A stretch of DNA of 64,000 nt from assembly GCA_963969395.1 (NCBI GenBank), contig OZ017797.1:25234001-25298000 (forward strand), in the 5' to 3' direction. The notes beneath the pieces were generated by a model. That model did no database searches. It saw only the letters and a list, made by a program, of their open reading frames with translations, and was not told where the DNA came from. This DNA comes from Pseudoscleropodium purum. Its lineage: Eukaryota > Streptophyta > Bryopsida > Hypnales > Brachytheciaceae. Shown in pieces: positions 1 to 63,836 of this stretch. Position 1 is the stretch's first letter. Every line of letters begins with the position of its first letter. The position numbers were made by a program, and so were the translations under genes.

Positions 1-184
1 GCTTATTCAGGCATAACTTTTGTTTCCAAACATTGATGGAAAAAAAATTATATTCTCATGAAGCTAATAAATTTTTCTATCTTCCAAAAAAAATAAAGAA
101 AAATAAAGAAAAAATTTCAGCCTGTAGGTACCTACTTGAAATCCCATTTGTCCCCCAAAGGGACAATGGTCCTTTAGGGGTTAA
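1..184 (+). mobile_element. Right end of a TTAA-type (piggyBac-like) non-autonomous element, family A
   Basis: The window opens inside a copy of the dispersed family called A here. The sequence runs through the family's characteristic right-hand block (reads like 'cataacttttg...', then 'tgtcccccaaagggacaatgg') and ends with TCCTTTAGGGG followed by TTAA at 181-184. The reverse complement of this end, TTAA-CCCCTAAAGGACCATTG, matches the left ends of other copies, so it is one of a pair of inverted termini. The left part lies outside the window. Non-coding. Confidence 0.75.
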
Positions 185-3466: not shown

Positions 3467-4660
3467 TTAAGCATTGCCCCTAAGCCTTGAAGGACCAAAG
3501 TCTCTTGTAGAAATAGATGAAAGTTTAGGTAATTTCCTATAATTTTGATTATTGGTGTGATTTTTTGAAACCTTTTTTCAAGGTTGAAAAACAAATTAAC
3601 TTTTGGTGAACATTATTTATAATTTAATTGATGTTGGCTAGCAAAACTTCTGTTGTTTAGAGCAAAAGTAGTCAAGCCCAAGCTTGAGATAAAAACATCT
3701 AAAACTTGAAATAAATTTCTTAAAGATTTAAAGATTTGATTTCTACATAAGATACTGATTTTGACATTAATAAAATTTGATTCTTTCTATTTTGATCATT
3801 GATGTAAAAGTTGCAAAGTCAATCTTATTGTGGACAACTACAACATCTTCAACATCAATTCTTTTACATAATCATCTTAAATTCACTATCTATCTATAGT
3901 GAAAATTTTATTTTTTATATGAAAGATTGCAATATATTTGGTTTTAAAGTGAATAAAGCCGATTTTTGAAAACAATCCTTGACTATATTCTTTGACTTTG
4001 AATCTCCTTAACTTAAAATTTTTGCACTAAATATTTGGATTTAAAAAAAAAAGTTCAAGGTCTTAATTGAAAGATTAGGAAAAAAAACTCCCAAAACAAA
4101 CACATTACAATATTTTCATTCTTTAAAAAATTGCAAAGTAGAAGTTAATTTAAGATTGAAGGAAAAATTGAATCTTTAAGAGTTCTAAGATGGAACTAAT
4201 ATACACTAACTCCAATAGTGAGACTGTTCTTTAAAAAATATTTAACCTTGTAAAACTTTTTTTTTAAATTGTAAAAATTGAGTTTAAAAATGAATCTTGT
4301 ACATTATTTTCTAGATGAATTTCTATAATTTCCTGCAAAATAAGAGGCTTGATGACTTTCACATCATTGATTCAAATGGAATGAATCAAAGCTTTCCATG
4401 TAATGACAAAACATAATCTATGATGAATAAATTCAAGATTTTGGGAATTTTTTTGCTATCCAATCTCTCCCATTTTGAGCTGCTTGTAGCATAACTTTTG
4501 CTCTTGGGCATTGTTTTAATAAAATCATATTCCCATAAAGATAATATAATTTTTTATCTTAAAAAAAAGTTTGCAAAAATCATGTCAAAAATTGAGGTTA
4601 CATAAGCCTTCCCAAAATCCATTTTGTTGCCTAGAGGAACGATGGGCTTTAGGGTTTCAG
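3467..4660 (+). mobile_element. Degenerate family A element
   Basis: The right two thirds (about 3,960-4,660) follow the family A order seen in other copies: a 'ttgactttgaatctccttaactt' type block, 'ttctttaaaaaattgcaaag', 'gttctaagatgga', 'ccaatagtgaga', 'cttgtagcataacttttgc', and the terminal block ending in GGGCTTTAGGG. The expected TTAA at the right end is mutated (GTTTC). A possible left end, CCCCTAAGCCTTGAAGGACC at about 3,477, suggests an element enlarged by an internal insertion. Confidence 0.55.
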
Positions 4661-4879: not shown

Positions 4880-6310
4880 ACCTTAAGTGGCACTAAGGTA
4901 CATCAACCTATCACCACTATGATTAATACTATGGATACCAATGATACACATTTTTAAATGACATTTAATTTTCATGCATGTGCTCTTTTTCTATGGACGA
5001 AATCCCAAGTGAAATTGAAGTTTAAAGTAACACTAGGGTTTATCAACCTATGGCCACCTTGATTTGTAGTAATAAATTTGACTACCTTGGTTTGAATGGT
5101 ATTTAAATTTTACACATGTGCTCTCTTCTCATGAACAAAATTCAAGTGGAATATAATCTGTAATAGGGTACACCAACCTATAGCCACCATGATTGTAATC
5201 AAGAGCCTAACTACCTTAGAGACAATTTTTTGAATGGTGTTTAAATTTCAAACATAGTAGACAAAATTCAAGTAGAATTGAATTTTTAGCTATAATAAGG
5301 TATATCAACTATTTATCTTGATTTGTATTTAGTAGTCTAACTAGCTTGGAGACAATTTTTTGAATGGTATTTATATTTTATACTTGTGCTCTTTTTTCAT
5401 AGATAAAACTTCAAGGAAATGAAAGCTTTAACCTTTTAGTGACAGTGGTTGATTTCAAGGGCAAGTGCAATTTTTGAATACAAATTTGGAAAAGGGAAAT
5501 TTCATTACTACTCCAAGGAAGTAATTATAAATCAAACCGTAGGAATTGATGTCGTAGGCTTTATCCGTGATAAGAACAAAAAATGAACATGATCTGACAA
5601 TGCAATTTGTTGCTAGTGATCTTCAAAGTGCAATGCATTGAAATAGCCTTCAATTGAAGCAACATAACATATTATTGCCCATAACTTTTGAAACATGTCT
5701 CTACAATTCATGAGGTTGCTAGTCAACATTTTTATTGTTCTTAGGCATCAATTTCAAATAAAATCACATGAGTTGATGAATATATATGCGACTTAGAAGG
5801 TATGACTTAGGTAGCCCTTCTTGTCTTTGGACAAGCACAATTATCTCATTACTGCACAAATTTTTTTGAAAATAGATTTTTTTGGAGCACATGCTAAAGC
5901 TTTATATGCATTACTCTTTGGGTTTGTTCAAATACCCGGTATTGAGAGCTATAAAAGACAAAGAATCCAAAATTTGACCAAAAAGTGGTCAACCGGTCAC
6001 TAAAGGGTTAAACAACAATAGGGTAGATTAACCTATTGCCACTTTGATTCGTAGCCAAGAATTTGATTAGCTTAGAGAGACCTTTTTGAATGGTATTTGA
6101 ATTCCATATATGTGTTGTTTTTTCATAGGCAAAACATAAGTAGATTTGAAGCTTTAAAGGACACTAGGGTACAACAACTATAGCCAGTTTGATGTTTAGT
6201 CAAAAGTTTGACTACTTTGGAGACAATTTTCAGAATGGTGTTTATATTTCTCACATAAGTACTATTGTTACTAACAAAAATTGAGTGTAATTTTACTTTG
6301 CCAATAAAAA
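4880..6310. repeat. Degenerate ~140-bp tandem repeat, about six units, interrupted by a transposon
   Basis: Each unit contains a 'cactagggtacatcaacctatggccac' type block, then a 'tttgactaccttggagacaa' block, 'ttgaatggtatttaaatt', 'catgtgctcttttttcat' and 'aagtggaattgaagctttaaa'. The first block starts near 4,885, 5,025, 5,163, 5,297, 6,012 and 6,157, giving a period of roughly 134-146 bases once the 580-base insertion (5,432-6,011) is removed. Units are well diverged, so the array is old. No coding potential. Confidence 0.75.
5428..6011. mobile_element. TTAA-flanked inverted-repeat element inside the 140-bp array
   Basis: The left boundary is TTAA (5,428-5,431) followed by CCTTTTAGTGAC. The right boundary is GTCACTAAAGGG followed by TTAA (6,008-6,011), whose reverse complement is TTAA-CCCTTTAGTGAC. 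The 12-base termini differ at one position. The insertion splits a tandem unit, and the neighbouring unit at about 6,147 has the uninterrupted GAAGCTTTAAAGGACAC, so the TTAA is single in the empty site and doubled around the insert. A 60-codon frame inside it is not convincing as a gene. Confidence 0.8.
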
Positions 6311-7425
6311 TTGAAATTTCTATGAATATATTTAAAATGTTCAACTCCAAAAATGCAAACCACTCATATGCTAGGCCATGAATATTTTAAATAAACCACC
6401 CTTGAATAATTCTTCAACCAATTGTTTAGAATCCTATTTCTACCTACACTAAATAATGAAATTAGGTTGCCCCACACTAATCTCTTGACATTCTACATTA
6501 TAAGAATGTCTATTGTTATTGTAGAAAGATGCAATAATGTAAGAACCAATTGTGTTCCATGGGTTGGTGCTTTGGTTTATGGCCCATGTTTAGTGATTGG
6601 CATATGCCTTCATGTGGACAAGCAGTGAGTCATGAGATAAGTTTTGTGAAGTTCTTTGGGTACGGCAACCTAATTGTCAAGGCAACCCAATTTCACTATT
6701 TAGTGTAGATTAAATTATAAGTCTAAGTTCCTAAAAGATCCTCTGTAATGAATTTGAGTGACAATTTCAAACTTAAACATTAATCTCATGTCATAGTCAT
6801 TTTTGAAATACGTAAGCAACATTATTCAAGCCAATAAACATTCATTAAGAATGGTAAAAGCACCTTAGCCCTAAAGAATTGGAGCACATTTATAACATAA
6901 ATAGTAAAACTTGCAACTTTTCAAGTAAGAGAGAAGAATTTTTTTTCTTCTAAAGTTCAATTTTATAAATTTGTACTAGACTACCATGCAAATGTTTGGA
7001 GTTTTTTTTTAAAACTTTGACTAGGTGTATTGAAAGATTATAGTGTTTGAAGTTAGAAGAAAAAATTATTTTTTGACTATGTTTGATAGGGTCTACAAAC
7101 TATAACTTCTCTTTGAGTGATATTTTGTACTATGCCTAGTTTGTTTTTTATAGTTGCATCCTAAACCATATATATATTATATACCCACCAAATTTCAGAG
7201 GTAGAAGAGGAATTTTGCACATGCTACTCTAAATTTCCTGCTTTACTTGAAAAACTAAAGGCAACATAACTTATGATCTAGGAATCTAATCAAGAAAAAA
7301 ATTATATTCCTACAAAATGGGTACATGTCAAACCCTTGTTTCAAAATTCATAACTTCACTTTAGGGTAGTTGCAAGAAAGGTAGTCCATTTTTTTGTAGT
7401 GTTTTGCTAAAAATAGACTTTTTGG
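6311..7425. other. AT-rich intergenic DNA, no gene seen
   Basis: No protein family, RNA gene or clear transposon boundary was recognised. A stretch around 7,140-7,270 resembles, in inverse orientation, part of the TTAA element at 25,096-25,764. Confidence 0.5.
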
Positions 7426-7428
7426 AGC

Positions 7429-7553
7429 ACAATAATATGAGTACTATAAGTACTATGAAACATAACAATTTCAACCATTCATCAAAAAAATCAACGGCTA
7501 AAAGTACCGTTTTGAGTACTATGAGTACTTCTAAGTACTAAAATATTATTGTT
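7429..7553. repeat. Short inverted-repeat element (MITE-like)
   Basis: Left ACAATAATATGAGTACTATA and right (reverse complement) ACAATAATATTTTAGTACTT form inverted ends of a 125-base segment rich in AGTACT motifs. No target duplication was identified, so its class is unknown. Confidence 0.5.
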
Positions 7554-8950
7554 TGAAGAAAAAAAAATTATGACAAAAAAAAATGGATAAATTAATGGTA
7601 TAAATTTATAAAAAATAATAAATCATGATTAAAAATAAAATAAAAATTGGCCATTTGTGAGAACTTCATGGTAATCATATTTCATCAAAAAAATTAAGCC
7701 AAAACCATCTTTACTCTTAAAAAGTGAGCGCGTAAGGGATCCCTGATTGTATGCATGTGGATGCCATAAAATAATGTTTTTTCAAGCTTTTTTTAGTGGG
7801 CACATGAATCTCTAATGTGGGAATATCCCACACAAATTTTATCTTTATATCATCAATTATGGGTACTCCACAATACTAAAAAATCCTAAACAACAAAGTC
7901 TAACAAATTAGCTAAATTGGAATTTAATTATAAATTTTTTGGGGGAAATTTCTGAAAAATAAGAATTCTCTTTATCAACAAGTTGGTTATTTTCAATAAA
8001 AAAAAATTCAAGTACATTGACTTTATTCTCCAAAATCATGGCCAAACTAAACTACACAATTCAAAGTGTGATGGAAAATAGGACCACCCTTTATTGCAGC
8101 TACCCTTTATAGGACCTACTAGGATTTTCAATTAGTCATTCAATGACTACTTGGTCTATTAGGAATTAATTGTCTCCCATTTGCATTTCTCACCAATTTT
8201 TTTACATTTCATTTTCACTTTGAAGGTATTGAACTTGAAGACATGTCAAATTTGGGGTAGTTTTATAGGTGATGAGAGCGGGTCATGAGTTTTAGGGTCT
8301 CACTGTTGGAATTAATGTGTTTCAATTCCATCTTAGAACTATTAACAATTTATTTTTCTTCCTTTCTCCTATCTACTTAGACTTAACAAATTTTTAACAA
8401 ATTTTTAAATAATTTAATTATTTTGATTCCTTGACTCATTTCTTCATCATAAAAAATTCAAAAATATGGTACAAACTTTTTTAATTAAAAGGACTCAAAG
8501 CCTTATAATCTAATTTGGCTAAATGCAGAAAAAAAACAGTTTTCTTCATAGTTTTCTTCAATGTTTATATCTCTAATAAAAGCTTGAAATATTCTTTTAT
8601 ACATCTCATTAGAAATTGGCTTCAAAAATAGATGTAAGACATTATTTTTCCAATAAGATGCTATGATTGCCTATAAAAAAATGCTCTATAACTTTCACAT
8701 CATTTATCCAAATGGAATGAATCAAATCCTTTAATATGGGCAAAACCTTAGAAGGCTCTTAGAGGTTCAAGCAATATATAAGAAGAAAATTTAAAAAAAT
8801 TATATTTCAAATTTTTTTTGTCTAAACCTCTAAGAGTCTTCTAAAGAGCCTCTTAGGGCATTTTAGGGGTTAGTGGAGTAAGTTATTGACCATATTGTGA
8901 ATTGTTCACAAAAAGTGACTATTTATTTTAATATAACAATTAGTGGTTGC
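7554..8950. other. AT-rich DNA with family A fragments
   Basis: About 8,300-8,530 is a minus-oriented piece of family A ('ctcactgttggaatta', 'ccatcttagaact'), and about 8,640-8,740 a plus-oriented piece ('gctatgattgcctat'). Around 8,747-8,860 an inverted pair (AGAAGGCTCTTAGAGGTT and AACCTCTAAGAGTCTTCT) forms a foldback. No gene seen. Confidence 0.5.
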
Positions 8951-9834
8951 TTAACTGTTAAAGTCCCAAGGCTTTTTTTCCCTATAAACCACTCAAAATT
9001 GACATCTCTATTATAAAGAGTGGAAAGCTTTAAAATTATTATTTTAATATTTAATTGTAGTATCTTTTACTAAACTAGTATAAGAGTGTGGAAGAAATTT
9101 CATAAATTTAGTAAATTTTGACTATATAGATTTGTAGATACTTGTGGTTACAATTAAAAAAACAGATTTTTATGCACCTTGTGTGACTAGATTATAAGAC
9201 TTTGAATCTTTATAACTTAAAATTTTTTTGCACCCTCTCAAAATTGAATGAAAAAAATTATTTTGAAGAATTGAGTTGAAAGTTTAGAAAAAAATTGAAA
9301 AAAACATGTTGATTTTCATTCTTTAAAAAATCATTCAATAGAAGTAGGAAAAACTAAATTGTTAATAGTTCTAAGATGGAATTGAAACACACTACCTCCA
9401 ATGGTGAGATTTTCTAGAAAGCATACTAAACCTTGTAGACAATCTTATTTTGAAAATTCAGTTCAAAAACAAATTTAATTCAATATTTTTTCAAGAAGAT
9501 ATAATGATTGTCTACAAAACAATAAGCTTTGTAACATTCACATTACTAGCCTAAAATGGAAAGAATCAAAGTTTTCTGTAGAAACAAAAATATAATCTCC
9601 AAAAAACAGGTTTTATTTGAATTTTATTTGTTGCATGGCAAGTTCTATTTTGTACTCAAGTTAGAATGACTTTTGCTCTTGGGCACTGATCAAAATAGAA
9701 ATAATATTCCAAAATGCTAATGTGCTTTTTCTATTTATGAAAGAATTTCAAAGTCTCAATGAAAATTGAGGTCATAGGAGCCTATTCAAAATCCATTTTG
9801 TCCCCTGTAGGGATAATGGAACTTTTGGAGTTAA
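8951..9834 (+). mobile_element. Family A TTAA-type element, full length
   Basis: The left end is TTAA-CTGTTAAAGTCCCAAGGC (8,951). The right end is GGAACTTTTGGAG-TTAA (TTAA at 9,831-9,834). Between them the internal blocks of the family appear in the same order as in the copies at 11,768 and 22,880: 'ccactcaaaattgaca', 'actaaactagtataaga', 'gattataagactttgaatc', 'gttctaagatggaatt', 'ttttgctcttgggcac', 'ttgtcccctgtaggga'. Non-coding, about 884 bases. Confidence 0.75.
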
Positions 9835-10179
9835 GGAAACTATTACAACCAATTTAGGTGGGTAACAAGGTGACTATGGACATTTTTAAAGTTGGTTTGA
9901 GGGCTTCTAGTAACTCCTTTGGTCTATTTGGACAAAAGAATACTTTTTCAATTCATATTTTCTTAGAAATTTATAATTTCAATTTGCTAAAGAATTCTTT
10001 GTAACAATATTGTAAGTGTCATATAACTAGTGTGAAAATTTGAATGAAATTTAAATGAAAGCATATAGAAATGAAGAAAAGTCCAAAGAAGGCACATGAA
10101 TTTTGATGAAGGTAGGATGAAAATCGTACTATTTCACATGGTATGAAAACATTGTAGACCCTAATTTGATATACACTAT

Positions 10180-10957
10180 TGTAAGCTACTCTAAAAATGG
10201 TATTTCTTGTGCGAAGATAAAATTTTAATTAATTAATTCTTTTGCAAATCCAACTATGAGATCTTGCATTAGATTAGTATGAAAGATTGTAGAAGAAACT
10301 TTAGATTTTAGTGATTGAATAGTAGCACTTACAGTGCAAATATAAAGATGCTTTTTTACCTTGTTATACTAGGTTATTAGACTTTAATCTTTTTAACTTA
10401 ATTTTTTTCTTATTACAAATTTTTTCACTCTAGATTTTGTATTGAAAAAAGTTACATACAATAAGATAATTAAATTGAAAGCCTGTAAAAGGAAAATGAA
10501 AAACTCTTTTTTTTCTTTTTCTTTGAAAATTATTTAGTAGATGTAGGTACAAGATGGTAGAACTAAAACTTTAATAGCTTTAAAATGGTATTGAAATATG
10601 TCAATCATATGCATTCATTTTTTATGAATTTTTTTGAGTGCCCACAATATAAGGATCTTCCTAACTTTCACATCAATCTATTCGTAAATAGAATTTTCCA
10701 TAGAAACATGAATATATTCTATGACAAATAAATTATAAAAAATATTATTTTGACTATTCGTCTTTTATTTTAGTACCATGGTTCATGAATTTTGTGCTTA
10801 GGGTGATATAAAATTTTCACTCATATGCACCAATTAAAATAAAAATGATATTTCCAAAACCTATTCTAACTAATCTATCCTTTTATCTTAAGATATTTTT
10901 CAAAAGAAAATGCCAAGAATTGAGATCATAGGAATATGTTGGAACTTTTAGAGTTAA
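10180..10957 (+). mobile_element. Degenerate family A element, left end lost
   Basis: Follows the internal order of family A from 'gatcttgcattagattagtat' (about 10,259) to the terminal block GGAACTTTTAGAG-TTAA (TTAA at 10,954-10,957). The right end is nearly the same as that of the copy ending at 9,834. No clear left terminus was found. Confidence 0.55.
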
Positions 10958-11211
10958 TATTCTTTTGGGTAGTTGCAAGAAAGAGTTCCTCTTTTTTGGG
11001 TCACAAGTATAGTTATGGAGTTAAAATTGGCTATAAATTTGGGAGAATCAAGTTCATGAACTTGAAATTTTTACTGAAGAGGACTAATTTGGCCATGAAG
11101 ACAATTCTTATTAAATTTAAAAAAATCATATTTAAATTTCAATTGAGCTAATTTGTCACACTTTGTAATTTATGTTTTTTTTAGTACTATAGAGTATCCA
11201 AAATTAATGAT

Positions 11212-11440
11212 TTAACCCTAGAACGATGGACTAGTCATTGTGGAAATCATCTATTTTGGTACAATGTGCATTTTGGGATTAAAAACATGAATAAGCATTT
11301 TTTAGAAGTCAAGCTATTGTAGAAGACCTTCTTTTCTCTTACAAAACTTTGAGGATAAATAGTTGCACTTCTGTCTTGCATGGAGAGATTTTTTGTCATT
11401 CATTAACCAAAAAATGTCCACGATAGTGATTATAGGTCAA
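11212..11440. mobile_element. Short TTAA-type insertion (family B-like)
   Basis: TTAA (11,212-11,215) is followed by CCCTAGAACGATGGACTAG, closely matching the left end at 2,048 (CCCTTAAAGGATGAACTGG). The right limit is placed at TCAA (11,437-11,440) because the flanks on either side join into the sequence found uninterrupted near 12,950-12,985. The right target copy has a T-to-C change. Confidence 0.5.
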
Positions 11441-11767
11441 AGGTGAAATTTTTGTAGTCTATTTCTACATCAGACATGTGACTATCAAGGGGCATCTAAA
11501 AAAACATTATTTTTTACATCCACATGTGCGTGAATAGGGGCCCATTGCGCACACCTTCTTGAATAGTGAAAATGGTTATAAGATCATTCTTTTGGTGAAA
11601 TCCCTTCATCAAATAGTTCTCCCAAATTGCTAGTTTTGTATTCTAAATTTTTTTCCTATTTTTTCCAAATTAAAATGTCAAAACACCTTTTACATGAGAT
11701 TTTGCACTTTTCTAGTTCTTCTACTTAGAGAATGTTTCTACACTTTTCCTTCCTAGGTACCTTCTTC

Positions 11768-12695
11768 TTAACCCCTAAATTCCCAAGGCATTTTTCAGTC
11801 AAAAACCACTCAAAACTGCCGTTTTTGCTGTGTTCATTTAAGAATACAAAAAAAATTAATTTTTTTAGAATCTAACCATAGGATCTTGTACTTTACTTGT
11901 CTTAGCTCACATGGTAAAAATTTCATGAAGTTTGACTGTATAGATTGGAAGATATTAGCATTCAAAGTTGAAAAAGAAATTTTTTTTGAACACTAGCTTG
12001 CAAATTCAGATGACTTTGACTGCCAATTGTGAATTTTTTTGCACTACAAACTTTGAATTTAAAATTTTTTTATGTTGAAGAATTGAGTTGAAAGTCTTCA
12101 AAATCTTTTTTAAAAAGAAACACTTGATTTTCATTCTTTAAAAAAATGTTAAGTAGAAGTAGGTCTAAGATTGGAAAAAAAACTAAATTGTTTATAACTC
12201 CAAGATGGGATTAAAAGACAATAATTCCAATGGTGAGATTGTTTTAGCAATTGAACATAACAATCTAAAAAAGAAATTGTGAAAAATTGTGAAAATTGCA
12301 TTAAGAAATGAACCCTACAAGTTATTTTTTCAAGAAGATGCTGAAATTGCCCAAAAAACAAAATTGTCTTTAACTTTCTCATAATTAGTCCAAATAGAAC
12401 GAATCAAAGCTTCACATGTAGACAAAAAGAAAACATTTCAAGGGAAAAAAATTAAAATTTATTTTGATTTTTAGCAATTTTTTTTGTGTTGCTTGTTGAG
12501 TTCAGTTTCAAGCTTTTTGTGGTATAACTTTTGCTCCTGGGCACCAATTGAAATAAAAATTATATTCCCATGCAGATAATCAATTTTTCTATCTTACGGG
12601 AAAGTTTCAAAACAATTCACCAAAAATTGAGATCATAGGAACTTGCCCAAAATCTAATTTGTCCCCCGAAGGGACAATGGGAATTTAGGGGTTAA
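11768..12695 (+). mobile_element. Family A TTAA-type element, best-preserved plus-strand copy
   Basis: The left end is TTAA-CCCCTAAATTCCCAAGGCA (11,768). The right end, read in reverse complement, is TTAA-CCCCTAAATTCCCATTG (TTAA at 12,692-12,695). The first 14 bases of the two termini are identical. The element is 928 bases including both TTAA copies and has no open frame of note. TTAA target duplication with a terminus beginning CCC is the established signature of the piggyBac superfamily; assignment of this family rests on that plus the transposase relic elsewhere in the window. Confidence 0.85.
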
Positions 12696-12710
12696 AAGTG
12701 TGTACATCAA

Positions 12711-13439
12711 GGTGAATGCAAGAAACACTAGTACTATTTTGTGTCACATTTGCAATTTCTAAGTTGTGATTGGCCATATCTTTTGCAGATTTAAACCAAT
12801 GTATTTGAATTTTTTATGAAGATCAGTATTTAGACAATAATTAGAGAACTTATTTTTCAAAAAATTCAAAAATCATTTTATATTTAATTTTAAATTTAGC
12901 TAATTTGTCACACTTTGTAGTTTAGGGTTTTTTAGTATTGGGGACTATCCAAAATTAATTATCTAAAGCTGAAATTTTTGTGCTCTATTCCTACACTAGA
13001 GAGGCATGTGACTACCAAAAAGAACTTAAAAAAACATTATTTTATGTCTTCTACATCCATGCAAACATGGCTCCCTTGCGAGTGCAATTTTGAACATTGA
13101 AAATGGTTTCATAGATAATTTATTTAGTGAAATATATTTATGATGAAGTCTTTTCAAATTAAGATATTTTAGTTTCTTTGAAAATTATTTTTCTTATTTT
13201 TTACAGATTAAAATGTCAAAGTATCTATTTTCTTCAAAAACTTTGTTTCTCTATATTGTGAATAACTTTTGATCCAAATTTTTTTGAGATCTAATTTTTT
13301 TGGTGATATAATATTTATAGTATTATGCTAATTATCTATATTTTTTTAATTTTTAAATATTTTTTTTTCCAAAAGGTCACTAATACTAGCTAGTACTAGG
13401 TGAATGCTATGAAAACAAAAGGTGTTTCTTGCATTCACC
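12711..13439. mobile_element. Inverted-repeat-bounded repeat, class unknown (family C)
   Basis: An 18-base terminus GGTGAATGCAAGAAACAC at 12,711 is repeated exactly inverted at 13,421-13,439. The flanking hexamers CATCAA and CATTAA differ at one base and could be a target duplication. The interior (12,897-13,150) is shared with about 11,146-11,211 plus 11,440-11,640, where it is split by the TTAA insertion. Confidence 0.5.
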
Positions 13440-14500
13440 CATTAAACACATTTTTTACATTTAAAATTTATTTTTTAAATTATAAATTATTCCTGAAAAG
13501 ATTAGCACTACAATACAAAATACTACAAAAAAATGGGAGGTCTTTCTTGCAATCATGTTTTTAGGGGTTGAAGGGATTAAAACTATATACAACAAGTCAA
13601 TGTTGGAAGAGAATCTACAAATAAAATAGAAGAAAGAATTTTCTAAGTTTGAGATGTAGTACCGATGTTATAAGATGAAATAATGTAACTTTACCCAATG
13701 GCATCCAAATATGAATATTGGTACAATTTTCATCACTAAATTGTCTTATATTTGTTGAGAGATTTACTTGTAATTGAAAAGAGATTTCACTTTCTTGTTA
13801 GAGCAATGCCACTCATTCCCCCCAAACAAGGCTTGAAAAATATAATGGCTTGAGCCCTTCACCTCCCATGCTCTTGTAGACTCTTAATTATCTTCGCCAT
13901 CACAACCCAATAAAACTAGTCAAGACGTGGTTAAATGACTTGGCAAGCTAGCTTATAAGTTAGCTAGGATTGTTGGAATGTGAAAAAGAAGAATATGTGA
14001 GCTCAACAAGAGGCTTGTCTTTTGAGTAGATAGTCACTCAAAAGATAGTTTTTTTCAATTAGTTTTTGATGTTAAGTTAAATTTTTAAAAATGGAATTTA
14101 TAAACCCCCCTCCCCTATTCATATTTTTGAGTGCCTCTTGTGGTCACAATCAATATGGGATATTGCCACCACACACATTTTAGTAGCCGTATTTTGTACT
14201 TGTATTGCACTATGTTTGTATTCAATATTCATATGCAATATTTTATATTTGTAATTTAATCAAATCAACAACTTTTGTTTTTTCACAAAGGTGTTTGTGT
14301 GGTTAATTGAGTGTTGGTGTTCGCAGAGTTTCTTTGTTTTGCTAGAAAAAACTAAATCCACCATTGCAGTGGTAGTTGATAGTTCAATCAATGGTTCACG
14401 ATTTTCCTTGAGGGAGGGTGGGGCTAGCACCCAAGCTTGTAATCACAGGAGATAGTAAGCTCAATAACAAAAAATAAGCAATACACATGAGGACAAAACA
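13440..14500. other. Intergenic DNA, no gene seen
   Basis: AT-rich, with a fragment at 13,505-13,555 that is the inverse of sequence near 7,361-7,410. No coding region or RNA gene recognised. Confidence 0.5.
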
Positions 14501-16785: not shown

Positions 16786-17642
16786 CCTGCCCAGGTCCCC
16801 GTCTCAAAGGCTTTTGGCAAGCAATTGGGCTCTGATAGCGCCCCGCCGCTTGGTCATGTCCAACGCTTCAAATCCTGAGCCACGCCTTTTAACGGTGCTG
16901 CGCCTGCATTCTTAGACTCGGAGCGAGTCGAGTGCACATGGAAAAGCAGTCCAGATTGGGACGTCGCGACTCCTTGAAGGTTTGTTGTTTTTCCTTCAAG
17001 GCGACAGCGATGTTGCTCGGGTGGCCTTGAAGGAGCATTACAATGTTGTCCTGGGGTACGTTCAAACGCAATGTGTTGGATTTGAACACACGGTATACGC
17101 ATGTGGAGCGCCGACATGATCAAAAACTCGTTCAATGACCGGGACAGAAACCTCTCTTTTGGGGCTTCGTAACTTGGACTGTTATGTTGTTTTGTGAGCT
17201 AGCGCGTGCAAAGGGGGTCTAGATTCGTGTACATACAGTCGCTTTTAGGGAACCAGTGTTATCGCCGTTTGGGACGCATCAGGAGACTGCAGACATTGTC
17301 CAAGTGGCTGGATTCCAAAGGCGTTCGGACAGGAATCGGCTAGCGTATTCCTTGCTTGACTCTTCATTAGGCTTCAATTGTATCCCAAGTTTGTGTATGG
17401 GCTTGTGGCTAGCTAGCTAGGGCTGCGTTTTCAATTTCCACCGATCGTTTGTTGTCGCATTTCACATCTGCATGGACCCCGTGGTTCATGTGTTTCTAGT
17501 CTTTTCTAGAGCTTGGCATGTCGAGTAATGGCGCAAGTTTGAAACCCAATTGTTTCCAGGGGGTATGCTCTCTCTCTTCTGTCAGTTGGCGAGGTTGTCA
17601 ACGCAATTTGTATTGAAACGTCTGTAGTAGAATCGCGTAAAC

Positions 17643-22879: not shown

Positions 22880-23810
22880 TTGACCCTAAAAATCAAAGAA
22901 TTAGTTGAAGCCACTTTTTCATCAATGAAAACTCAAAATTGTTATTTCTATTGCAAAGAGCAAAATTTATGGAAAAAAGGTCTAAATATCTAACCATATG
23001 ATCTTGCACTAAACTAGTGTGAAAATGTGTTGAAGAAATTTGAGAAACACGGATCACATAGATTGTAAGATCTTTGCAAATAAAGTGAAGATGACGTTTG
23101 TACTTGCCTAACTAGATTATTAGGCTTTGAATCTTCTTAGTCTAATATTTTTGCAATACAAATCTTGAATATAAGGATTTTTATGTTGAGAATTGAAGAA
23201 TTGACAATCTAGGAAAAAATGGAAGAAAAAACACTTACTTTTTATTTTATAAGAAATTATTAAGCACTAGAAATAGGTACAATATAGAAGGAAAAACTAC
23301 ATCAATAATATTTTTAAGATGGAATTGATACATACTAATCTCAATCATGAGATTGTTCCAAGAAACAAATTTAAGCATGTAAAATTCATTTTTTTGAAAA
23401 ATTGTAAAAATTGAATTCATAAACAAATCCAATACATTGGGTTTTCTATAAGATGCTCGAATTGCCTCCAAAATAAGATGCTCGCATAACTTTCTCACCA
23501 CTATTCCAAGAAGAGTAAATCAAACGTTTCCACGTAAACGATAGTGTTTTCTATGAGAGTGAAAAATCAATATTTTGAGTTTTTGTGAATTTATTTAGCT
23601 ACCCAACAAAATCCATTTTGACCTTTGTGTGGCTTAATTTTGTTTCCAGTCACCAATTTAAATTTAAATAAAGATTATAATCCCATAAAGCCAATGTGTT
23701 TTTTTATCTTCAAAAAGAATTTCAAAAATCATGCCAAAAATTGAGACCATAGGAACCTACCTAAACTTTCATTTGTCCCTTGAATAGACATTTGGTCCTT
23801 TGGGGTTTAA
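22880..23810 (+). mobile_element. Family A TTAA-type element
   Basis: The left end is TTGA (mutated TTAA) followed by CCCTAAAAATCAAAG at 22,880. The right end is GGTCCTTTGGGG followed by TTTAA (TTAA at 23,807-23,810). Internal blocks match the copies at 8,951 and 11,768 throughout: 'actcaaaattgttatttct', 'gatcttgcactaaactag', 'gattattaggctttgaatc', 'ccatttgtccctt' type end. About 931 bases, like the other full copies. An 84-codon minus-strand frame inside it is incidental. Confidence 0.75.
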
Positions 23811-25095: not shown

Positions 25096-25764
25096 TTAAC
25101 TCCTAAAGGACTAAATGACCATTGAACGTACGTAGGTGATTGTAGATAGGTGAATATGAAGTCATTTTTTAACAGATGTTGTTCAAATTTTGACACAAGG
25201 TGTGAACATCTACTTTCTTAGTGGGAGTGTAATTTTTTTCCAAATGGGTGCCTAAATCAAAAGTTATGCTACCTTAAACTTTAGAGGCAACTTAGGTAGC
25301 TTTAGGGAGCATGTGCAAAACTCCTCCTATAATTTTGAAATTTGGTAGGTATGAAATTCATATGATTGGTACAAGATGCAAAATGTCTCCAAAAAATAAC
25401 CATGTATAGTGTAAAAATCTCACTCTAGGAAGAATTTAAGTTTGCTAGCTTTGTTGGGCAAGGTTGGAAAAACATTTTTTTCAAACGTTATAATCTTTCA
25501 ATCTATCTAACCGTGGTTGTCACATTGGACAGATTACTATTCATTTCTTGTCCTATAGGACATGAAATGAATAGTAATCTGTCCAATGTGACAACCATGT
25601 ATCTAACCAAAGTTTTTGAAATTTTTCCACACATTCCTATAGTAGTTTAGTACAAATTTGTATGATTGAATTTTGAAAAAAATTCATTTTTTTCTCATTG
25701 CCTTACAACAAAGCAATCCTTTACAATTTGTACCTAAAATGTGCCTTGGTCCTTTAGGAATTAA
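25096..25764. mobile_element. TTAA-flanked element with family A-like termini but different interior
   Basis: The left end is TTAA-CTCCTAAAGGACTAAATG (25,096). The right end in reverse complement is TTAA-TTCCTAAAGGACCAAGG (TTAA at 25,761-25,764). The shared core TCCTAAAGGAC is that of family A, but the interior differs and resembles sequence near 7,140-7,270 in inverse orientation. It hosts the foldback at 25,514-25,597. Confidence 0.75.
25504..25608. mobile_element. Tiny foldback insertion with flanking 9-base direct repeats
   Basis: The core at 25,514-25,597 is an almost perfect hairpin: the left arm starts TGGTTGTCACATTGG and the right arm ends CCAATGTGACAACCA. The arms span 39-40 bases with one mismatch around a 4-base TATA loop. 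The direct repeat TATCTAACC lies at 25,504-25,512 and 25,600-25,608, one to two bases outside the hairpin. A 9-base duplication with long inverted termini would fit a Mutator-type miniature element. The near identity of the arms points to a young insertion in an old host repeat. Confidence 0.75.
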
Positions 25765-27002: not shown

Positions 27003-29200
27003 CTTATATTTTGAAATTGAATAACTTATTCAAACAATGTCCAAATAATGTATACTAAATTGCATTAGAATCTTCTTTAAATTGCTAATAAAGATATAAA
27101 AAGTTATTTATGTCAATAATTGCAAGAATGTTCATTTTTTATTAGTGTCAATTACATGTGCATTTACTTTAAAGAAAAAGAAAAATAAGTTCTAAAATTT
27201 AATGGAAGTACAACTCACACTACATAAATCCTCAATCCATTTGGTAATTAACCCTACAAAGATATTGTAGACCTAAAAGGTTCAATGGCTAACTACACTC
27301 TTGATTGTGGAAACAAAGAATGCACCTAGTGGTTCAATAATTAGAATATTTTCATGACTACCTTGGATCCACATCTTTCTAGGGTTAATTGATTGTATTG
27401 TCAAATTTGAAAGTCCTTTGCTCTATATCCTCCATTTATTTGTTATTTGTGAGTGGATTTTTATTTTTTTATTTTTTAGAGATGAATTCACATGTTTGAT
27501 TATCATCCAAATTTTTTAAATTATCATGAATGTTTGAAGAAAAAATGAAGAAAACTAATATCAAATATAGATCATGTTAAAAAAAAATTTAATTTTTAGA
27601 AGAAAATTAAATTATAGTGTAGAACATCATTTTGTAAAGAATTATTTTTGTCACTCCATTTTTAAAAACATGGGTAAATATTCAATTTCAAACTTCATTA
27701 GATGTTTGTTTTTTTAAATTCCAAAATTTGTAAAGGAAATAGAAAGTAAACTTCAAAACTTAGAAGCTTCATTTTGTTAGTTTTTCTTAAGAAAAGTCAA
27801 AATCAAGTGTTAAGGGAAAAAACTCAAAGTATTGAAATACACTAAATAATTATTGTCCATTTTTATTGATGAGTAACCCATATAAAATTAAAAACAACTA
27901 AAATGTCTCAAACTCAATTCAATGATGTGGCTATAGCACTAATAAGTTGCTTATACAAAATTGGATGAAAACCATCTATTTTTTAATATGCACAAAGCTT
28001 GGTTGTCCATATAAAGGACAAAAAAGTCCTTGGTAATATGATTTTCTTAATTTATAATGTGTTTTTTGTGCATTAGCTATGTGTAGGATGGGTTGGATTT
28101 CCCCTTCTTCTTTTTAGATCTTAGAAAGTATTGTTGCACATGCTAGGTGGTGAGAATTTATATAACTTGGGCCTCTTGGGGCATCTGCAATGCACATGAC
28201 AAATTGGCATGGCAAAAAAAAAAGTTTTGAATGCTTGGTCTGGAATTAAAAATTAAAAAAATTATTATTGGAAATACCTAAAAAAATTTAAGTATATCTA
28301 AGAGTCCATGGATTTAGACTTAAGAGGACTAAAATAGACTTCAATTGACAACAAGAGAAAATACAAAAATATAGTACTTTCTAGCAATGAAACTTTTGAT
28401 CTGGCCTCGTGAACAAAAAAAGAATCATGTTCTTATGAAGGATATACATGTTCACAACATATGTCAAAATTTTAGAGAGATCCATTCAAAATTAAATTTG
28501 TAGGAATCTACCCAAACTTCTAATTATTCTTTGAACAAACACTTGATTAAAGGTTAATAACTTAAACATACATTATCAATTCATTTAATATGCATTTCAA
28601 AATTGAAGTAATTGTCATACAAATTATGAAACCACATGAATATGATGTAATAGTGTTGGAACTTGGTGCTTACATACTTCATTATTATTAGTGCTAGTGA
28701 CAACAAGCAAGTCCTTTATTTATATTAGTCTATGATTCTTGTGGAACCTCAACTATTTATTTTCTCTCACTATTATTGTCATGAGAGGATAAAATTATAA
28801 GTAGATTTATGATAAATGGGCATTATTTGAAAATATTGATCAAATTAAAGTCAATAACCAATACTTGTAGAAGACCCATAAAACAACAAATTTACTAGTT
28901 GATCCCCAAATTTATGAGTGTCAAGCAAAATTCCTTGAAATTTTTTCCTAAATTTTTTCCTTAAAAGACAAATTGAAGTAGCATCTAATCCAAGGTCATT
29001 TCATCATATTTTTTTGAACCTATGCAAAATTCATTATGAATTTTTGAATAGGAAATGACATTTGTCTTCAAAAGCACAGTGTATTTACCACCAAACCAAT
29101 TCCAAACTCTAACATTTACCTTTGTTTTAGCACCTCCTCCCTTACCTCCAATGACAAAATAACAACCCATCATCCACACCAACCTTAAGTTAGGTTGTTT
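27002..29200. other. AT-rich intergenic DNA, no gene seen
   Basis: All frames are broken. About 28,370-28,560 resembles a decayed right end of family A ('caaaattttagaga', 'aggaatctacccaaact'). Confidence 0.5.
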
Positions 29201-31932: not shown

Positions 31933-32237
31933 TTCTGCGTCAGGGTTGACGAATGTCAACGTCCGCCCCAAAATAGCGTTCATTTTCTGAACGTCCGGAC
32001 GTCCGGACGCAACATCCCGACCGCCGTCGGAAAGCGGACGGGCGGGGTGGACGCTCAGATCGTGCGGACCAGATCAGTCTGCACGTCGATCGGACGGCCG
32101 TAATCGGGCAGACGGGCGGACGGGGCGGACGGGGGACAGGCGGACGCTGCGTCCGCCGGGACGTGAATGTCAGCAGACGTTGCGGACACAGCGTCCGCGT
32201 CCGGACGTCCAGACGTCGTGTCAACCCTGTTCTGCGT
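31933..32237. mobile_element. GC-rich hAT-like miniature element, copy 1
   Basis: The element is 31,941-32,229 (289 bases). It begins CAGGGTTGAC and ends GTCAACCCTG, a perfect 10-base inverted terminus, and is flanked by the perfect 8-base direct repeat TTCTGCGT (31,933-31,940 and 32,230-32,237). An 8-base duplication with a CAG...CTG terminus is established for the hAT superfamily. The body is GC-rich and packed with CGGACG/CGTCCG motifs, in sharp contrast to the host DNA. It encodes no transposase, and open frames across it are by-products of composition. Confidence 0.92.
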
Positions 32238-32486
32238 TGATAAGTGGTATGCTAAAATTCTAAATTTTGTTTTGCATTGTAATTTTATTGTATAACGGTT
32301 TAGGGTTTAAGGCATTTTCAAAACCCTTTTTGTAGGGTCTTCCATTGAGTTGTAGTTTAGGGTGCTTTTCAAATTCATTAGATTAGGGTTTGGGTGGTGT
32401 TGCAGCTTAGAGGCTGTACTTTCAGGGTTTAGGACTATAGGTTTTACCTTTGGCTCTACAGAATGTGCAAGATTTTGTAAATGCAA

Positions 32487-33425: not shown

Positions 33426-34420
33426 TTAACTTGTATTGGACCAGTGTCCTTTTGAAGTTTGGGCAAATACCTACAAGTTTAATTTCTTGCATGATCTTCT
33501 AAATTTTTTAATATATAAGAAAGATAATACATTCTTAAAATTAAATTGGTGTTAGAGAACGAAAAGTTATATCACCTAATGTAAAAACAATAGAGCCTAT
33601 GAAACATAAATATCATAGAAAATGAAATAAAGATTTTGAAAAATAGTTGATCATAGAATGTATTTCATCATTATGAAAGGCTTTCATTCATTCCATTTAG
33701 ATTATTGATGTGAAAGTTACAAAGTGTCTTGCATTTAAGGTATTTAGAGCATCTTCAAAAGAAATAACTTATAGGATTTGTTTTTGAATAAAATTTCCAA
33801 AACAAAATAGGTCTTAACATCTCAATTATTTGTTAGAACAATCTCACAATTAGAATTGATATATTTAAATTCCATCTTATTATTATTAACAATTTAAGTG
33901 TTTTTTCAATCTTACACCTTCTTCTAGTGAACATTTTTTGAAAGAATGGAAATTTTTTACTACATTACTATCAACATAAGTTTCCATTGCAACAATTTTA
34001 ACCTCAAAACCTTATATTGCAAAATTTTAGTTTAGGAGGCATCATAGTCTTTTCCCATATCATAATAGTACCTTTGCTATTTTATTTGCCTAAAATTTAT
34101 TTATTTTAGTGCCACATATTTTTTTTAGAGGTTCACATGTAGCAACATCTTCAAAAAAACTATTATCTTCTACATGAGCTATTAACAAAGCACAATAATC
34201 TAGTATAGAAGGAACTAAAAAAGAATTTTTCACTTTTGACACTAATATCTTCAAAGTATATGGTTGTAATTTTTGAATTTACTTCTGCAGTTTTTTCTCA
34301 CTACTCTAGTATAAGATCCTACTACTAGATTTTTTTAAATCATTTATTTATCTTTGCAATAGAAATGGTATTTTCAGAGTGTTTTTTGGTAAAACGTAGT
34401 TATAGAACTTTAGGAATTAA
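33426..34420 (-). mobile_element. Family A TTAA-type element, reverse orientation
   Basis: Left TTAA (33,426-33,429) and right AACTTTAGGAA-TTAA (34,417-34,420) bound a minus-oriented copy. Diagnostic blocks appear inverted: 'caatctcacaattagaatt', 'ccatcttattattatt', 'gcaaaattttagtttagg', 'tctttgcaatagaaatgg'. At 995 bases it is slightly longer than other full copies, which suggests small internal insertions. Confidence 0.65.
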
Positions 34421-35255
34421 TCTCTTCATTGTATTGATTTCTAAGGGTTGATCTTCGTCCTTTACAGGTGTAAATGGCATACCGATACTTCAAAAATATA
34501 TGGTATCCTACATTAAAAACGTAGTTATTTGCACGTGGGATATCCTAAATGCATCTACCAATGAAAAATAAATTTACTCTACTTTACTCTTGTTGTGTAA
34601 ACATGTTTAAGGGACTTCACATATAGGGGGGGCAAAATTGTTACCAAGATGGTATTCTTGACTTCAACATCAATGTGTTCAAAAAGTTAGCATTGCATTT
34701 TGGATCCATTGTCAACATCCTATTAAAGTTGGTCTTTATGTACCCCTCCAAATGCAACATATTCCCTTCTTCTAAGCATACAATATTTTTAGGATAATGC
34801 CTTTTACTGTTAGAAAAATTCATGAGTTTTACACAACAAGAAAACCTAGACTTTTGAATTTACAAAAATATTCAAATTGTCTCTATTCTAGTAGTCAAAA
34901 AGATTAGTCTACACTAGATCAATTGATTGAGCTTTTAGATTATTTCTATTAAATTTCTCTTAATTCGAGCTCTAGAAATACACTAATTATGGATATAACT
35001 ATTAAATCCACCCTTTTAAAAAACTGTAATATATATTTAAAACTTTCAGTAATCAATCTAATTTCTACAAAATAATTTATTTAAGAAAATCATATAATTT
35101 TAATTTTGATGATCTTAACAATAGTAATCAAAGATAAATCTAATATGAAGATAATTGAATGGAAAAAATATAAAATAAACATTTTTGATTTATTATTTTA
35201 ATATAAAAAATTAATGAAGCTTGGTTGGGTTTGGACATGATTTGTCCATTAAGTG
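34421..35255. other. AT-rich intergenic DNA, no gene seen
   Basis: No protein family, RNA or element boundary recognised. Confidence 0.5.
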
Positions 35256-35712
35256 TTAACCCCTAATGTTCCAAGACCCTTTTGTCATCAAAAAGCACTC
35301 AAAATTGCCATTTCTATTGTAAAGGGTATAAAAATTTTCTAATGATTAACTATAAGATCTTGCATTAGACTAGTATAAGAAAATAGAAAAACAAATTTAG
35401 AAACTTCCACTATATAGATTACAAGATTTTTGAGTTTGAAGTAAAGAAAGTAGGAGCACATTACTTGACTACTATAGATTATTAGACTTTGAATTCTCTT
35501 AACTTAAAAAAAATTATATTGAAGATTTGAGATGAAAGCCTTGGAACAAAAATTCAAAACCCCCTTGAGATTTTCATTCTTTAAAAAATTGTAAAGTAGA
35601 AGTTGATACAAGATTGAAGGAAAAAGCAATTGTGAATAACTCTAATAAGATGCAATTGAAACGCATTAATCATAGTAGTAAGATTGTTGCAACAAGCATA
35701 TTTAACCTCAAG
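35256..35712 (+). mobile_element. Family A element truncated on the right
   Basis: The left end is TTAA-CCCCTAATGTTCCAAGACC (35,256), followed by the left half of the family ('aaaaagcactcaaaattgcc', 'gattattagactttgaatt', 'caattgaaacgcattaatc'). The match stops near 35,712, about 140 bases beyond the end of the aspartic protease coding region, so the element abuts that gene's 3' side. Confidence 0.7.
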
Positions 35713-44922: not shown

Positions 44923-45564
44923 CTACAGGAGACGGTGCCCCACAATGGCATTCAGGACTCTCCGGATAACCTCTGTGCCATGAGCAAGATCAATGTCCAT
45001 GACGCCATGGCTAAGGGAGTTCCTGGTGGAAGCCTGACCCGTCGTCCCACTCTCAGCACTGGACACAACCAAAGCATGCATACGATTCCTCCTTCTCAGC
45101 TCCTTCAATTCTCGCCTCATGCGAGACAGACTCCGAACGTCGGCGTCGACGAGATTTTGCATCTGCGCAATGCCCTCCTCTTCTCCTGCAAGCCTTGTGC
45201 GCTCTACGTCTTCCTGTCGACACACATGATCCATAGTTTCACGATACAAGTGAACCGCGATCGAGTCATGGTCAGGTGCCGAAGTAGTAGGTGCCCGTGG
45301 ATGGGGCCGAGGCGGAATTGTAATTGCAGCAGCATTTGCAGCTTGTGGAGGTTCCGCTTGTGTGGTCACGTAGACGGGGGTGATGCTGGAGTGGAGGGTG
45401 AGAGAGGATCGGCACACGGGACAGGGTTTGGCCATGTCGTGGACCCATCGATACAGGCAGGGCCAGCAGAAGAGATGTCCGCACGATGTGCAGACGGGGT
45501 TCTGGGATTCCTCGAAGCAGATGTTACAGCCCCAGGTGGGAAGCATATCATTCGAATCCGCCAT
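44923..45564 (-). CDS. RMA/RNF5-like RING-finger E3 ubiquitin ligase
   Basis: A single uninterrupted frame of 213 aa starting at the ATG at 45,564 (MADSNDML). The N-terminal C3HC4 RING spans residues 13-51: C13-x2-C16, C28-x-H30, C33-x2-C36, C48-x2-C51, with CGHLFCWPCLYRW, the wording of the RMA/RNF5/RNF185 group, followed by an ITPVYV segment like the LVPLYG found there. These ligases recruit E2 enzymes and usually sit in the ER membrane by a C-terminal hydrophobic tail. Here the C-terminal half is hydrophilic, with a charged, probably helical stretch (RMRRELKELRRRNR) and no membrane segment before the stop. It may be soluble, or a tail exon may have been missed. All RING ligands are present, so it should be active. 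The frame is open a further 12 codons upstream, but no ATG lies there. Confidence 0.88.
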   Translation of the reverse strand: MADSNDMLPTWGCNICFEESQNPVCTSCGHLFCWPCLYRWVHDMAKPCPVCRSSLTLHSSITPVYVTTQAEPPQAANAAAITIPPRPHPRAPTTSAPDHDSIAVHLYRETMDHVCRQEDVERTRLAGEEEGIAQMQNLVDADVRSLSRMRRELKELRRRNRMHALVVSSAESGTTGQASTRNSLSHGVMDIDLAHGTEVIRRVLNAIVGHRLL

Positions 45565-61712: not shown

Positions 61713-62614
61713 TTAACCCCCAAAGGACCAAGGAGCCTACTTTGGGCTTTTTGAAAACTTGAGCAAACTCTATTGACTTCATAGTTTGGAATTTTTGCAT
61801 GAATTCTTTAGGATAAATACTACTCATTAGAAACTACTTGTGAAGCTTTGTTTCATGTCATTCCAATAAATATTGCAAAAATTAGCAGGATTTTTGTATT
61901 TCAATGTCAAACAAAGTAGCAAAATATATATTCTAAAAAAATATTAATTATTTTTTTGGAAATGTATAGAGTGCTACTTATTCAAAAACATTTGAACCAA
62001 TCAATTTTGAATTATGATGTAAAAGATATGAGGAGTTTTATTCTGTAGGCAATAAAGATAGAAAAACATATAAAGTCATCTTTTGCTCTCAATTTTGAAA
62101 ATTTCAAATAAAAATAAGAATAAAGGGGAATAATTTTTTAGTAGAACATTCTCACCATTAAAATTAAGAATTTTTCATTTTTTGTAAAATTTATTAGTAG
62201 ATTTAGCTTTTCTATCATTTTGTACTACCTTCCACTTTACAATTTCTTAAAGATGAATATGAAAATATTTTTGTTTAAATTTTTTATATATTTTTTCAAA
62301 ATATGTTTTAAATATTGATTAAAATGCACAAGTTATGGGATATACCTATATTTTTTTTAAATGTTGAGAGACCAAACTTCATCTTTTTAAGGGGTTAGAG
62401 AAGCTTCTATTTTGAAGTTTAGGCACATTGAACTTGCAATTGGTAAGGATATTCATTCTTAAATTTTGGGGCAATGTACTTGAACAAATTAACCAAAGGA
62501 TCCTATGGGTGAATTTCTTAAAATATATATATTGAAGAAAATTTTGACCTTGCTTGGAGATGAGTATTTTAAAGTAGTTTGGGCTTCTAAACATGTTGGT
62601 CCTTTAAGGTTTAA
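61713..62614 (-). mobile_element. Family A TTAA-type element, reverse orientation, diverged
   Basis: Left TTAA-CCCCCAAAGGACCAAGG (61,713) and right, in reverse complement, TTAA-ACCTTAAAGGACCAACATG (TTAA at 62,611-62,614). The inner core AAAGGACCAA is identical. The interior contains inverted family A blocks such as 'cattctcaccattaaaatt'. About 902 bases. Confidence 0.65.
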
Positions 62615-62907: not shown

Positions 62908-63836
62908 TTAACCCCCAAAGTCCCAAGAGTCTCCTTGGGGGACTTTTGAAGGTTTGGGTGGTACTTATGATCTCAATATTTGATAGGTTTTTTTGAAAAC
63001 TTTTGTCAAAGATAGGAAAACTTATTAGTTTTTTTAGGAATTTAATTTTTATTTCAATCGGTATCTAAGAGCAAAAATTATGCCACAAGAAGCCCAAAAT
63101 AGGCAAAAGTATGCAACAAAAACATCCAAAAGAATTTAGATAATTTAAAAAAATTCTCTTGAAGCTTATATTTTTGTCTATGTAGAAAGATTAGATTCAT
63201 TCTACTTAGATAAGTGATGTAAAAGTTATGAAGCTTTTTATTTTGCAAGCAATCTAAGCAAATTTCTTGTGAAAATAATGTATTGGATCTATTTATAAAC
63301 TCAATTTTAATAATTTTCCAAAAATCAAAATTGCACAAGGTTTAATTTGCTTTTTAAAACAATCTCACCATTGGAATTAGTGAGTTTCAATACCATCTTA
63401 AAGCTATCATCAATTTAGTTTTTCCTTCTATTTCATACCTACTTTGGCTTAATTATTTTTTACAAAATGAAAATCAAAGGAAAGGTTGAATTTATTTTCC
63501 AAAATCTCAATTCAATTCTTCAACATAGAAAAGTTTTAATTTACAATCAGTAGCACAAAAAAATTTTAATTAAGAGGATTCAAAACCTTATATTCAAATT
63601 AGGCTAGGAGCAAAAATACTTGTTTCTTCACTTTAAACACTTATATCTTGTGATTGATATAGTTAAAATTTTAAAAATTTCTTCTACAAATTTTCATGCT
63701 AGATAAGTGTAGTGCAAGATCTAATAATAGGATATGCAAAAGAAAAAAAATGTTAAAATTTTTTGTTGTTTGCATTGAAAATGACAATTTTGAGTGTTTT
63801 TTTACAGAAAAATGGCCTCAGGACTTGAAGAGTTAA
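62908..63836 (-). mobile_element. Family A TTAA-type element, full-length reverse copy
   Basis: Left TTAA-CCCCCAAAGTCCCAAGAG (62,908) and right, in reverse complement, TTAA-CTCTTCAAGTCCTGAGGCC (TTAA at 63,833-63,836). All family blocks appear inverted and in order, including 'atttcaatcggtatctaaga', 'caatctcaccattggaatt', 'ccatcttaaagct' and 'gacaattttgagtgttttt'. At 929 bases it has almost the same length as the plus-strand copy at 11,768-12,695. Confidence 0.8.

What the first reader, a model, noticed from the sequence alone, without database searches (positions are those of the whole stretch)
8951..12695. A ~930-bp TTAA/CCCCTAAAGGACC family makes up much of the AT-rich DNA
At least ten copies or fragments in both orientations share the same internal block order and end in TTAA plus a terminus of the type CCCCTAAAGGACC (ends at 184, 8,951/9,834, 10,957, 11,768/12,695, 22,880/23,810, 33,426/34,420, 35,256, 61,713/62,614, 62,908/63,836). 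The copy at 11,768-12,695 has 14 identical terminal bases and doubled TTAA; full copies cluster at 884-931 bases. TTAA duplication with CCC-starting termini is the piggyBac hallmark. Such elements are much better documented in animals than in plants, so a plant genome filled with piggyBac-type non-autonomous copies would be notable.
Basis: partly seen in the sequence, partly recalled or inferred. Interest (0 to 1): 0.75.

Follow-up and report, generated by a model that had tools for sequence, protein, structure and literature searches.

The report
piggyBac-like transposon remnants in a moss
A stretch of DNA, most likely from a moss, holds many old copies of a roughly 930-letter jumping element that shows no gene of its own and, like the insect piggyBac element, inserts at the letters TTAA; it looks like a new example of a known kind of element in a little-described plant group.

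Summary
Six full-length copies (884-995 bp) and 11 further profile matches, in both orientations, form one family. 14 of 15 clear ends read TTAA, followed by a CCCCTAAAG-type terminus. Flanks are unrelated beyond the TTAA. Matches cover 14.0% of the window and 32.4% of its 11 most AT-rich 2-kb bins.

The one clear breach, shared right flanks of two copies, is nesting: copy b and another TTAA element (Y) sit inside a different transposon, X3. Removing the inserts leaves an X of normal length.

The host is probably a moss. The window also holds a 141-bp TTAA element whose two ends each match the published insect piggyBac end at 16 of 17 bases. The family's right end keeps a 19-bp palindrome with compensatory changes, near the place of piggyBac's 19-bp repeat.

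Best reading: non-autonomous, long-diversified TTAA cut-and-paste elements, probably piggyBac superfamily. No transposase was found and the host genome could not be searched, so membership is probable, not proven. A review already lists PiggyBac among angiosperm MITE superfamilies: a new member of a known kind.

The parts
8951..9834 (+). full copy a, TTAA to TTAA (884 bp)
11768..12695 (+). full copy b (928 bp), 14/14 identical termini, nested inside transposon X3
22880..23810 (+). full copy c (931 bp), left end TTGA
33426..34420 (-). full copy d (995 bp)
61713..62614 (-). full copy e (902 bp), most diverged
62908..63836 (-). full copy f (929 bp)
1..184 (+). right part of a copy, right end at 184
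3483..3850 (-). fragment, eroded right end (CTAA)
3924..4655 (+). fragment, eroded right end
8297..8545 (-). internal fragment
8610..8747 (+). internal fragment
10183..10957 (+). copy lacking its left end, right end TTAA at 10957 (two profile matches)
28423..28545 (+). weak internal fragment (E 1.2e-6)
35254..35708 (+). copy g, left half only, left TTAA at 35256
25096..25764 (-). shorter relative B (669 bp), same type of ends, different middle (two profile matches)
6867..8169 (+). second B copy, interrupted by transposon X2 (7364-8105), which is flanked by TTTA on both sides
12659..12677 (.). 19-bp palindrome near the right end of copy b; counterparts in a, c, e, f and the copy ending at 184
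11212..11441 (+). element Y inside X3: left TTAACCCTAGAACGATG, right end followed by TCAA
27248..27388 (.). element V (141 bp): both ends 16 of 17 to the piggyBac end TTAACCCTAGAAAGATA
5428..6011 (.). element W (584 bp): ends TTAACCTTTTAGTGACAG / TTAACCCTTTAGTGACCG; its right end has a 19-bp palindrome

Best explanation
The family is a set of old, non-autonomous DNA transposons (long MITE-like elements) in what is probably a moss genome. A transposase supplied in trans recognised the short CCCCTAAAG-type termini and, at the right end, a 19-bp palindrome. It excised the element and reinserted it at TTAA, duplicating the TTAA. Shown here: family, ends, TTAA, asymmetric interior, right-end palindrome with compensatory changes, nesting. 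Inferred: cut-and-paste, trans mobilisation, palindrome as a transposase-binding site, piggyBac-type enzyme. Full copies differ from each other by about 33-40%, yet 11 of 12 full-copy ends keep TTAA intact. I infer that much of the divergence arose in parallel mobile lineages before the present copies inserted.
For: Ends and TTAA. Flanks at chance identity beyond TTAA (0.296 and 0.253 against 0.271 random), inside 0.52-0.55. Nested insertion of Y in X3: filled GATTTAA...GGTCAAAGGTG, empty counterparts ATCTAAAGCTG and ATATAAAGATA. X3 without inserts is 712 bp against 729 and 742. Element V has piggyBac ends: 2 TTAA sites within 1 mismatch of CCCTAGAAAGATA, 0 of 200 shuffles with any, and 2 of 2000 permuted 13-mers with two or more; published end seen in PMC7351741 (passage). 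Palindrome covariation 0.562 against 0.270 shuffled (1/500) and at most 0.400 when slid. Kolobok ends are 5'-RR, unlike these (PMC9587614, passage). 11 of 12 TTAA intact against 4.15 expected if they had decayed like the body. Insect piggyBac itself transposes in rice and tobacco cells (PMC10905368, passages), so plant cells do not bar the mechanism.
Against: No transposase in the window (no ORF of at least 130 aa overlaps a full copy; only 9 of 20 ORFs were scanned), and the genome was never reached. Empty-site alignment right at the b site is weak: 120 bp before it against X2 is no better than chance (146 of 300 controls as high), against X1 2 of 300; after it 0 of 300 (X1) and 7 of 300 (X2). 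Left and right termini of one copy are not significantly more alike than between copies (401 of 5040 permutations). The left end has no comparably clear palindrome (aligned, pairs not counted). The palindrome count includes G-T as pairs and leaves out two right ends (d, 10957) that show none. V, Y and W are different elements, so their ends support the family only indirectly, and V's likeness to piggyBac was noticed after the scan. Ends were partly located by their TTAA, which biases the TTAA count upward.
Confidence: 0.7

Rival explanations
1. A TTAA-targeting DNA transposon of another superfamily (Sola3, or one not yet described) made the family; the resemblance to piggyBac is convergent.
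For: No transposase was found; family ends (CCCCTAAAGGACC type) are not the piggyBac end. That Sola3 uses TTAA is recalled; the passages seen in two papers did not define its ends.
Against: Near-exact piggyBac ends on element V and one end of Y in the same window; 19-bp palindrome at a similar distance from the end.
Confidence: 0.2
2. Kolobok-type elements, which also duplicate TTAA.
For: TTAA; Kolobok occurs in chlorophytes and rhodophytes (PMC9587614, passage).
Against: Kolobok starts 5'-RR; of the 15 clear family ends 12 start CC or CT, two AC and one TT.
Confidence: 0.03
3. The ~930-bp unit is part of a longer repeat or a tandem unit (family + X), so the TTAA is not a border.
For: Right flanks of the copies ending at 10957 and 12695 are 70% alike.
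Against: X is a separate transposon with its own inverted ends; X3 starts 9 bp after 10957 and contains b, Y and X1; X2 lies inside a B copy. Five other right flanks compared with that of b (a, c, d, e, f, plus 184: six in all) give weaker AT-rich matches; the strongest, right of d at E 4e-10, lies at a different offset.
Confidence: 0.04
4. Tc1/mariner (TA) or PIF/Harbinger (TTA/TAA) elements with a preference for TTAA.
For: TA and TAA lie inside TTAA.
Against: The outermost T is kept in 16 of 17 rows and the innermost A in 15 of 17; two of these rows are misregistered B ends.
Confidence: 0.03

Closest known systems
piggyBac superfamily (insect piggyBac and its MITEs)
   Same: TTAA; short CC-starting termini; 19-bp palindrome close to an end (15-33 here, 17-35 in the published left end); asymmetric ends
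   Different: No transposase seen; family terminus CCCCTAAAG rather than CCCTAGAAAGATA; copies old and diverged; moss host
PiggyBac MITEs reported in angiosperms (PMC10004981, passage)
   Same: Non-autonomous elements of this superfamily in a land plant (their TTAA is recalled, not in the passage)
   Different: Moss host; about 930 bp long.
Kolobok T2-MITEs of Xenopus (PMC6004289, passages)
   Same: TTAA-flanked, abundant, long-lived non-autonomous families
   Different: Termini AGGRR; here mostly CC or CT

Membership tests
piggyBac superfamily | TTAA target site duplication | tested here: met
   14 of 15 clear ends (14 of 17 with eroded ones); flanks unrelated outside
piggyBac superfamily | empty site carries one TTAA | tested here: inconclusive
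   Y in X3: the filled copy has TTAA and TCAA, empty counterparts CTAA and ATAA; b in X3 fits by length (712 against 729/742) but local alignment is weak
piggyBac superfamily | termini begin CCY with short inverted repeats | tested here: met
   end consensus CCCCTAAAGTCCCAAG from the 12 full-copy ends, first base C in 9 of 12; b 14 of 14; CCC motif in PMC10813416 (passages)
piggyBac superfamily | sub-terminal palindromic 19-bp transposase site | tested here: inconclusive
   right end, six of eight copies: palindrome at positions 15-33, 92.9% of 42 cells paired (G-T counted), covariation 1/500; two right ends without it; left end unclear; binding not tested
piggyBac superfamily | DDD transposase (DDE_Tnp_1_7) in an autonomous relative | not tested
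   genome search unanswered
piggyBac superfamily | seamless excision | not testable with these tools
   needs an experiment or several genomes
Kolobok | 5'-RR...YY-3' termini | tested here: not met
   12 of 15 clear ends start CC or CT, two AC, one TT; definition from PMC9587614 (passage)
Tc1/mariner | TA duplication only | tested here: not met
   outermost T kept in 16 of 17 rows
PIF/Harbinger | 3-bp TAA/TTA duplication | tested here: not met
   all four bases kept at left and right ends
Sola3 | TTAA duplication plus Sola transposase (recalled) | not tested
   no transposase available; passages of the two papers found gave no terminus definition

The most novel reading that the evidence does not exclude
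Mosses carry an ancient, vertically kept piggyBac-type system that has driven several divergent TTAA families at once (the ~930-bp family, B, Y, V, W). Their ends still show the insect piggyBac layout, a ~14-16-bp terminus followed by a 19-bp palindrome, and in element V almost the same letters, so end recognition would have been conserved between insects and mosses.
Probability: 0.3. Interest if true: 0.6.

Novelty: new member of a known kind. Interest (0 to 1): 0.42.

Why it matters
If confirmed, piggyBac-type elements would be a sizeable part of AT-rich DNA in a moss, a lineage for which the listings of my paper searches (open-licence papers only) showed no title on such elements. It would give a non-animal test of how conserved end recognition by piggyBac transposases is, and a possible source of plant-native TTAA transposons with footprint-free excision.

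Tried and rejected
Homology running through the TTAA: seen for b and the copy ending at 10957, traced to transposon X and nesting. Shared flank of c and f: only weak AT-rich matches. Upstream similarity of e and g (34933-35183 with 62853-62606): offsets differ; not resolved. Right flank of d resembling the X1 tail: not followed. Co-variation of left and right termini within copies: not significant. Rfam and tRNA scans: nothing. Pfam on 9 of the 20 ORFs listed: RING, MYB and two weak matches below cut-off (TAXi_N, DUF423), no transposase. The other 11 ORFs and shorter ones were not scanned. The RING protein search (10 hits) did not place the host clearly: named hits include Ectocarpus, Cicer, Ceratodon, Silene and Spirodela.

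One search used wrong registers for copies d, e and f and was redone. One search shows two B ends (25764, 25096) misregistered; one search gives them correctly. One search picked a wrong start for X3 and an empty X2 and was redone. In one search the AT-rich controls were drawn from stretches that include X itself (largest control score 105).

Full report
Observation. Whole-window self-comparison and a profile from the six full copies confirm one family with a colinear, asymmetric interior in both orientations: 17 profile matches at E<=1e-3 (six full copies and 11 matches at nine other places), 8936 of 64000 bases, and a reversed-window control with best E 0.4. Copies are 62-84% identical to their majority consensus. 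Outside the TTAA, 60-bp flanks of the six copies are at chance identity (0.296 left, 0.253 right; random 0.271, sd 0.063), while the first 20-24 bases inside give 0.52-0.55. TTAA is exact at 14 of 15 clear ends, or 14 of 17 with two eroded ends. Termini follow a CCCCTAAAG type.

Borders. Two copies appeared to breach their right border, because the sequences after 10957 and after 12695 are 70% alike. The shared sequence X is a separate transposon of 712-742 bp with its own inverted ends (GGGTAGTTGCAAGAAAG type). X1 is 12711-13439, X2 7364-8105 (minus), X3 10967-13557. X3 contains three insertions: Y (11212-11441), copy b (11768-12695) and X1. Taking them out leaves 712 bp against 729 and 742 for X1 and X2. 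At the Y site the filled sequence has TTAA on the left and TCAA on the right, and the two empty counterparts read CTAA and ATAA. At the b site the length fits but the local alignment is weak: controls as high were 2 of 300 before and 0 of 300 after the site against X1, and 146 of 300 and 7 of 300 against X2. X2 in turn lies in a B copy and is flanked by TTTA on both sides. So X is an independent transposon and not part of the family.

Host. The MYB gene near 17.6-19.7 kb, with exon borders guessed, matches an unnamed sequence at 90% over its length. The next hits are further unnamed sequences and Ceratodon purpureus at 52% over its length; liverworts, Sphagnum and seed plants match over shorter parts. 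Of 2511 matches the best 120 were listed. The RING protein is less clear. A moss is the best reading; the species is unknown.

What kind of element. Kolobok also duplicates TTAA but starts 5'-RR (PMC9587614, passage); here 12 of 15 clear ends start CC or CT, two AC and one TT. TA-only or three-base duplications do not explain the conserved outer bases. piggyBac elements have TTAA and CCC termini (PMC10813416, passages). Element V (27248-27388) was one of 5 pairs found by a scan for TTAA-anchored inverted ends; its likeness to piggyBac was noticed afterwards. Its ends, TTAACCCTACAAAGATA and TTAACCCTAGAAAGATG, each match the published piggyBac left end TTAACCCTAGAAAGATA (PMC7351741, passage) at 16 of 17 bases. 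Two TTAA sites lie within one mismatch of the 13-base terminus, and 0 of 200 shuffles have any; of 2000 permuted 13-mers (CCC kept) 2 do as well. Y's left end is 15 of 17. V and Y are not members of the ~930-bp family, so this shows that piggyBac-type ends occur in this genome and supports the family's assignment only indirectly.

Palindrome. At 15-33 bases from the right TTAA the family carries TTGTCCC-N5-GGGACAA (12659-12677 in copy b). Six of the eight right ends (a, b, c, e, f, 184) were aligned and counted; d and the copy at 10957 show none there and were left out. In these six, 92.9% of 42 cells pair, with G-T counted as a pair. Four of seven pairs show changes on both sides, one of them only as G-T. 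The covariation score is 0.562 against 0.270 in shuffles (1 of 500) and at most 0.400 in slid versions. Element W has a palindrome of the same size and other sequence at 16-34. Among 998 other TTAA sites 7 reach 6 of 7 pairs with at least three G-C; among the 30 listed ends 4 do (a, b, 184, W). piggyBac has a palindromic-like 19-bp repeat bound by the transposase (PMC7351741, passages); by the printed letters it lies at 17-35 of the left end.

History. If the ends had decayed like the body, 4.15 of 12 TTAA would be expected intact; 11 are (P 3e-5). With the covarying palindrome this suggests that much divergence arose while lineages were still mobile. The ends were partly recognised by their TTAA, which inflates the count. 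Left and right termini of the same copy are not significantly more alike than across copies (401 of 5040).

Novelty. A review lists PiggyBac among seven MITE superfamilies in angiosperms (PMC10004981, passage), another names it among plant superfamilies (PMC10794571, passage), and a fern genome table lists 1230 PiggyBac entries at 0.00% (PMC6890710, passage). Insect piggyBac works as a tool in rice and tobacco (PMC10905368, passages). Paper searches for piggyBac with moss or bryophyte terms list no title on moss piggyBac elements. I opened passages of three of the listed papers (PMC10619864, where the word is 'piggybacking'; PMC6890710; PMC10004981); the rest were seen as listings only, and the library holds open-licence papers only. 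Hence: new member of a known kind, in an under-described host group. The decisive evidence, a transposase and genome-wide borders, could not be obtained.

Noticed in passing
12711-13439, 7364-8105 (minus), 10967-13557: Independent ~712-742 bp transposon X, inverted ends of GGGTAGTTGCAAGAAAG type (18 of 18 in X1); X2 is flanked by TTTA on both sides; superfamily not assigned.
   Followed up: partly
2048-2465: Two Y-like sequences in inverted arrangement (a long near-palindrome), next to a partial V relative at 2482-2597.
   Followed up: partly
4885-6291: Cluster of directly repeated stretches (about 130-390 bp, 65-71% alike) around element W.
   Followed up: no
49673-49896, 50409, 60138, 60777: Further TTAA ends of CCCCTAAA-like or similar type, possibly more small families of the same group.
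   Followed up: no
31941-32271, 47263-47664, 48058-48426: Repeats outside the AT-rich DNA, partly G/C-rich tandem units (CGGACAGGCGGACGGG type).
   Followed up: no
17631-19703: R2R3-MYB gene in a GC-rich island (up to 55% GC) amid AT-rich transposons; Ceratodon purpureus is the best full-length named match.
   Followed up: partly
44923-45624 (minus); 37258-37914 (minus): RING-finger protein gene; a piece with a weak aspartic-protease-like (TAXi_N) match below its cut-off.
   Followed up: partly
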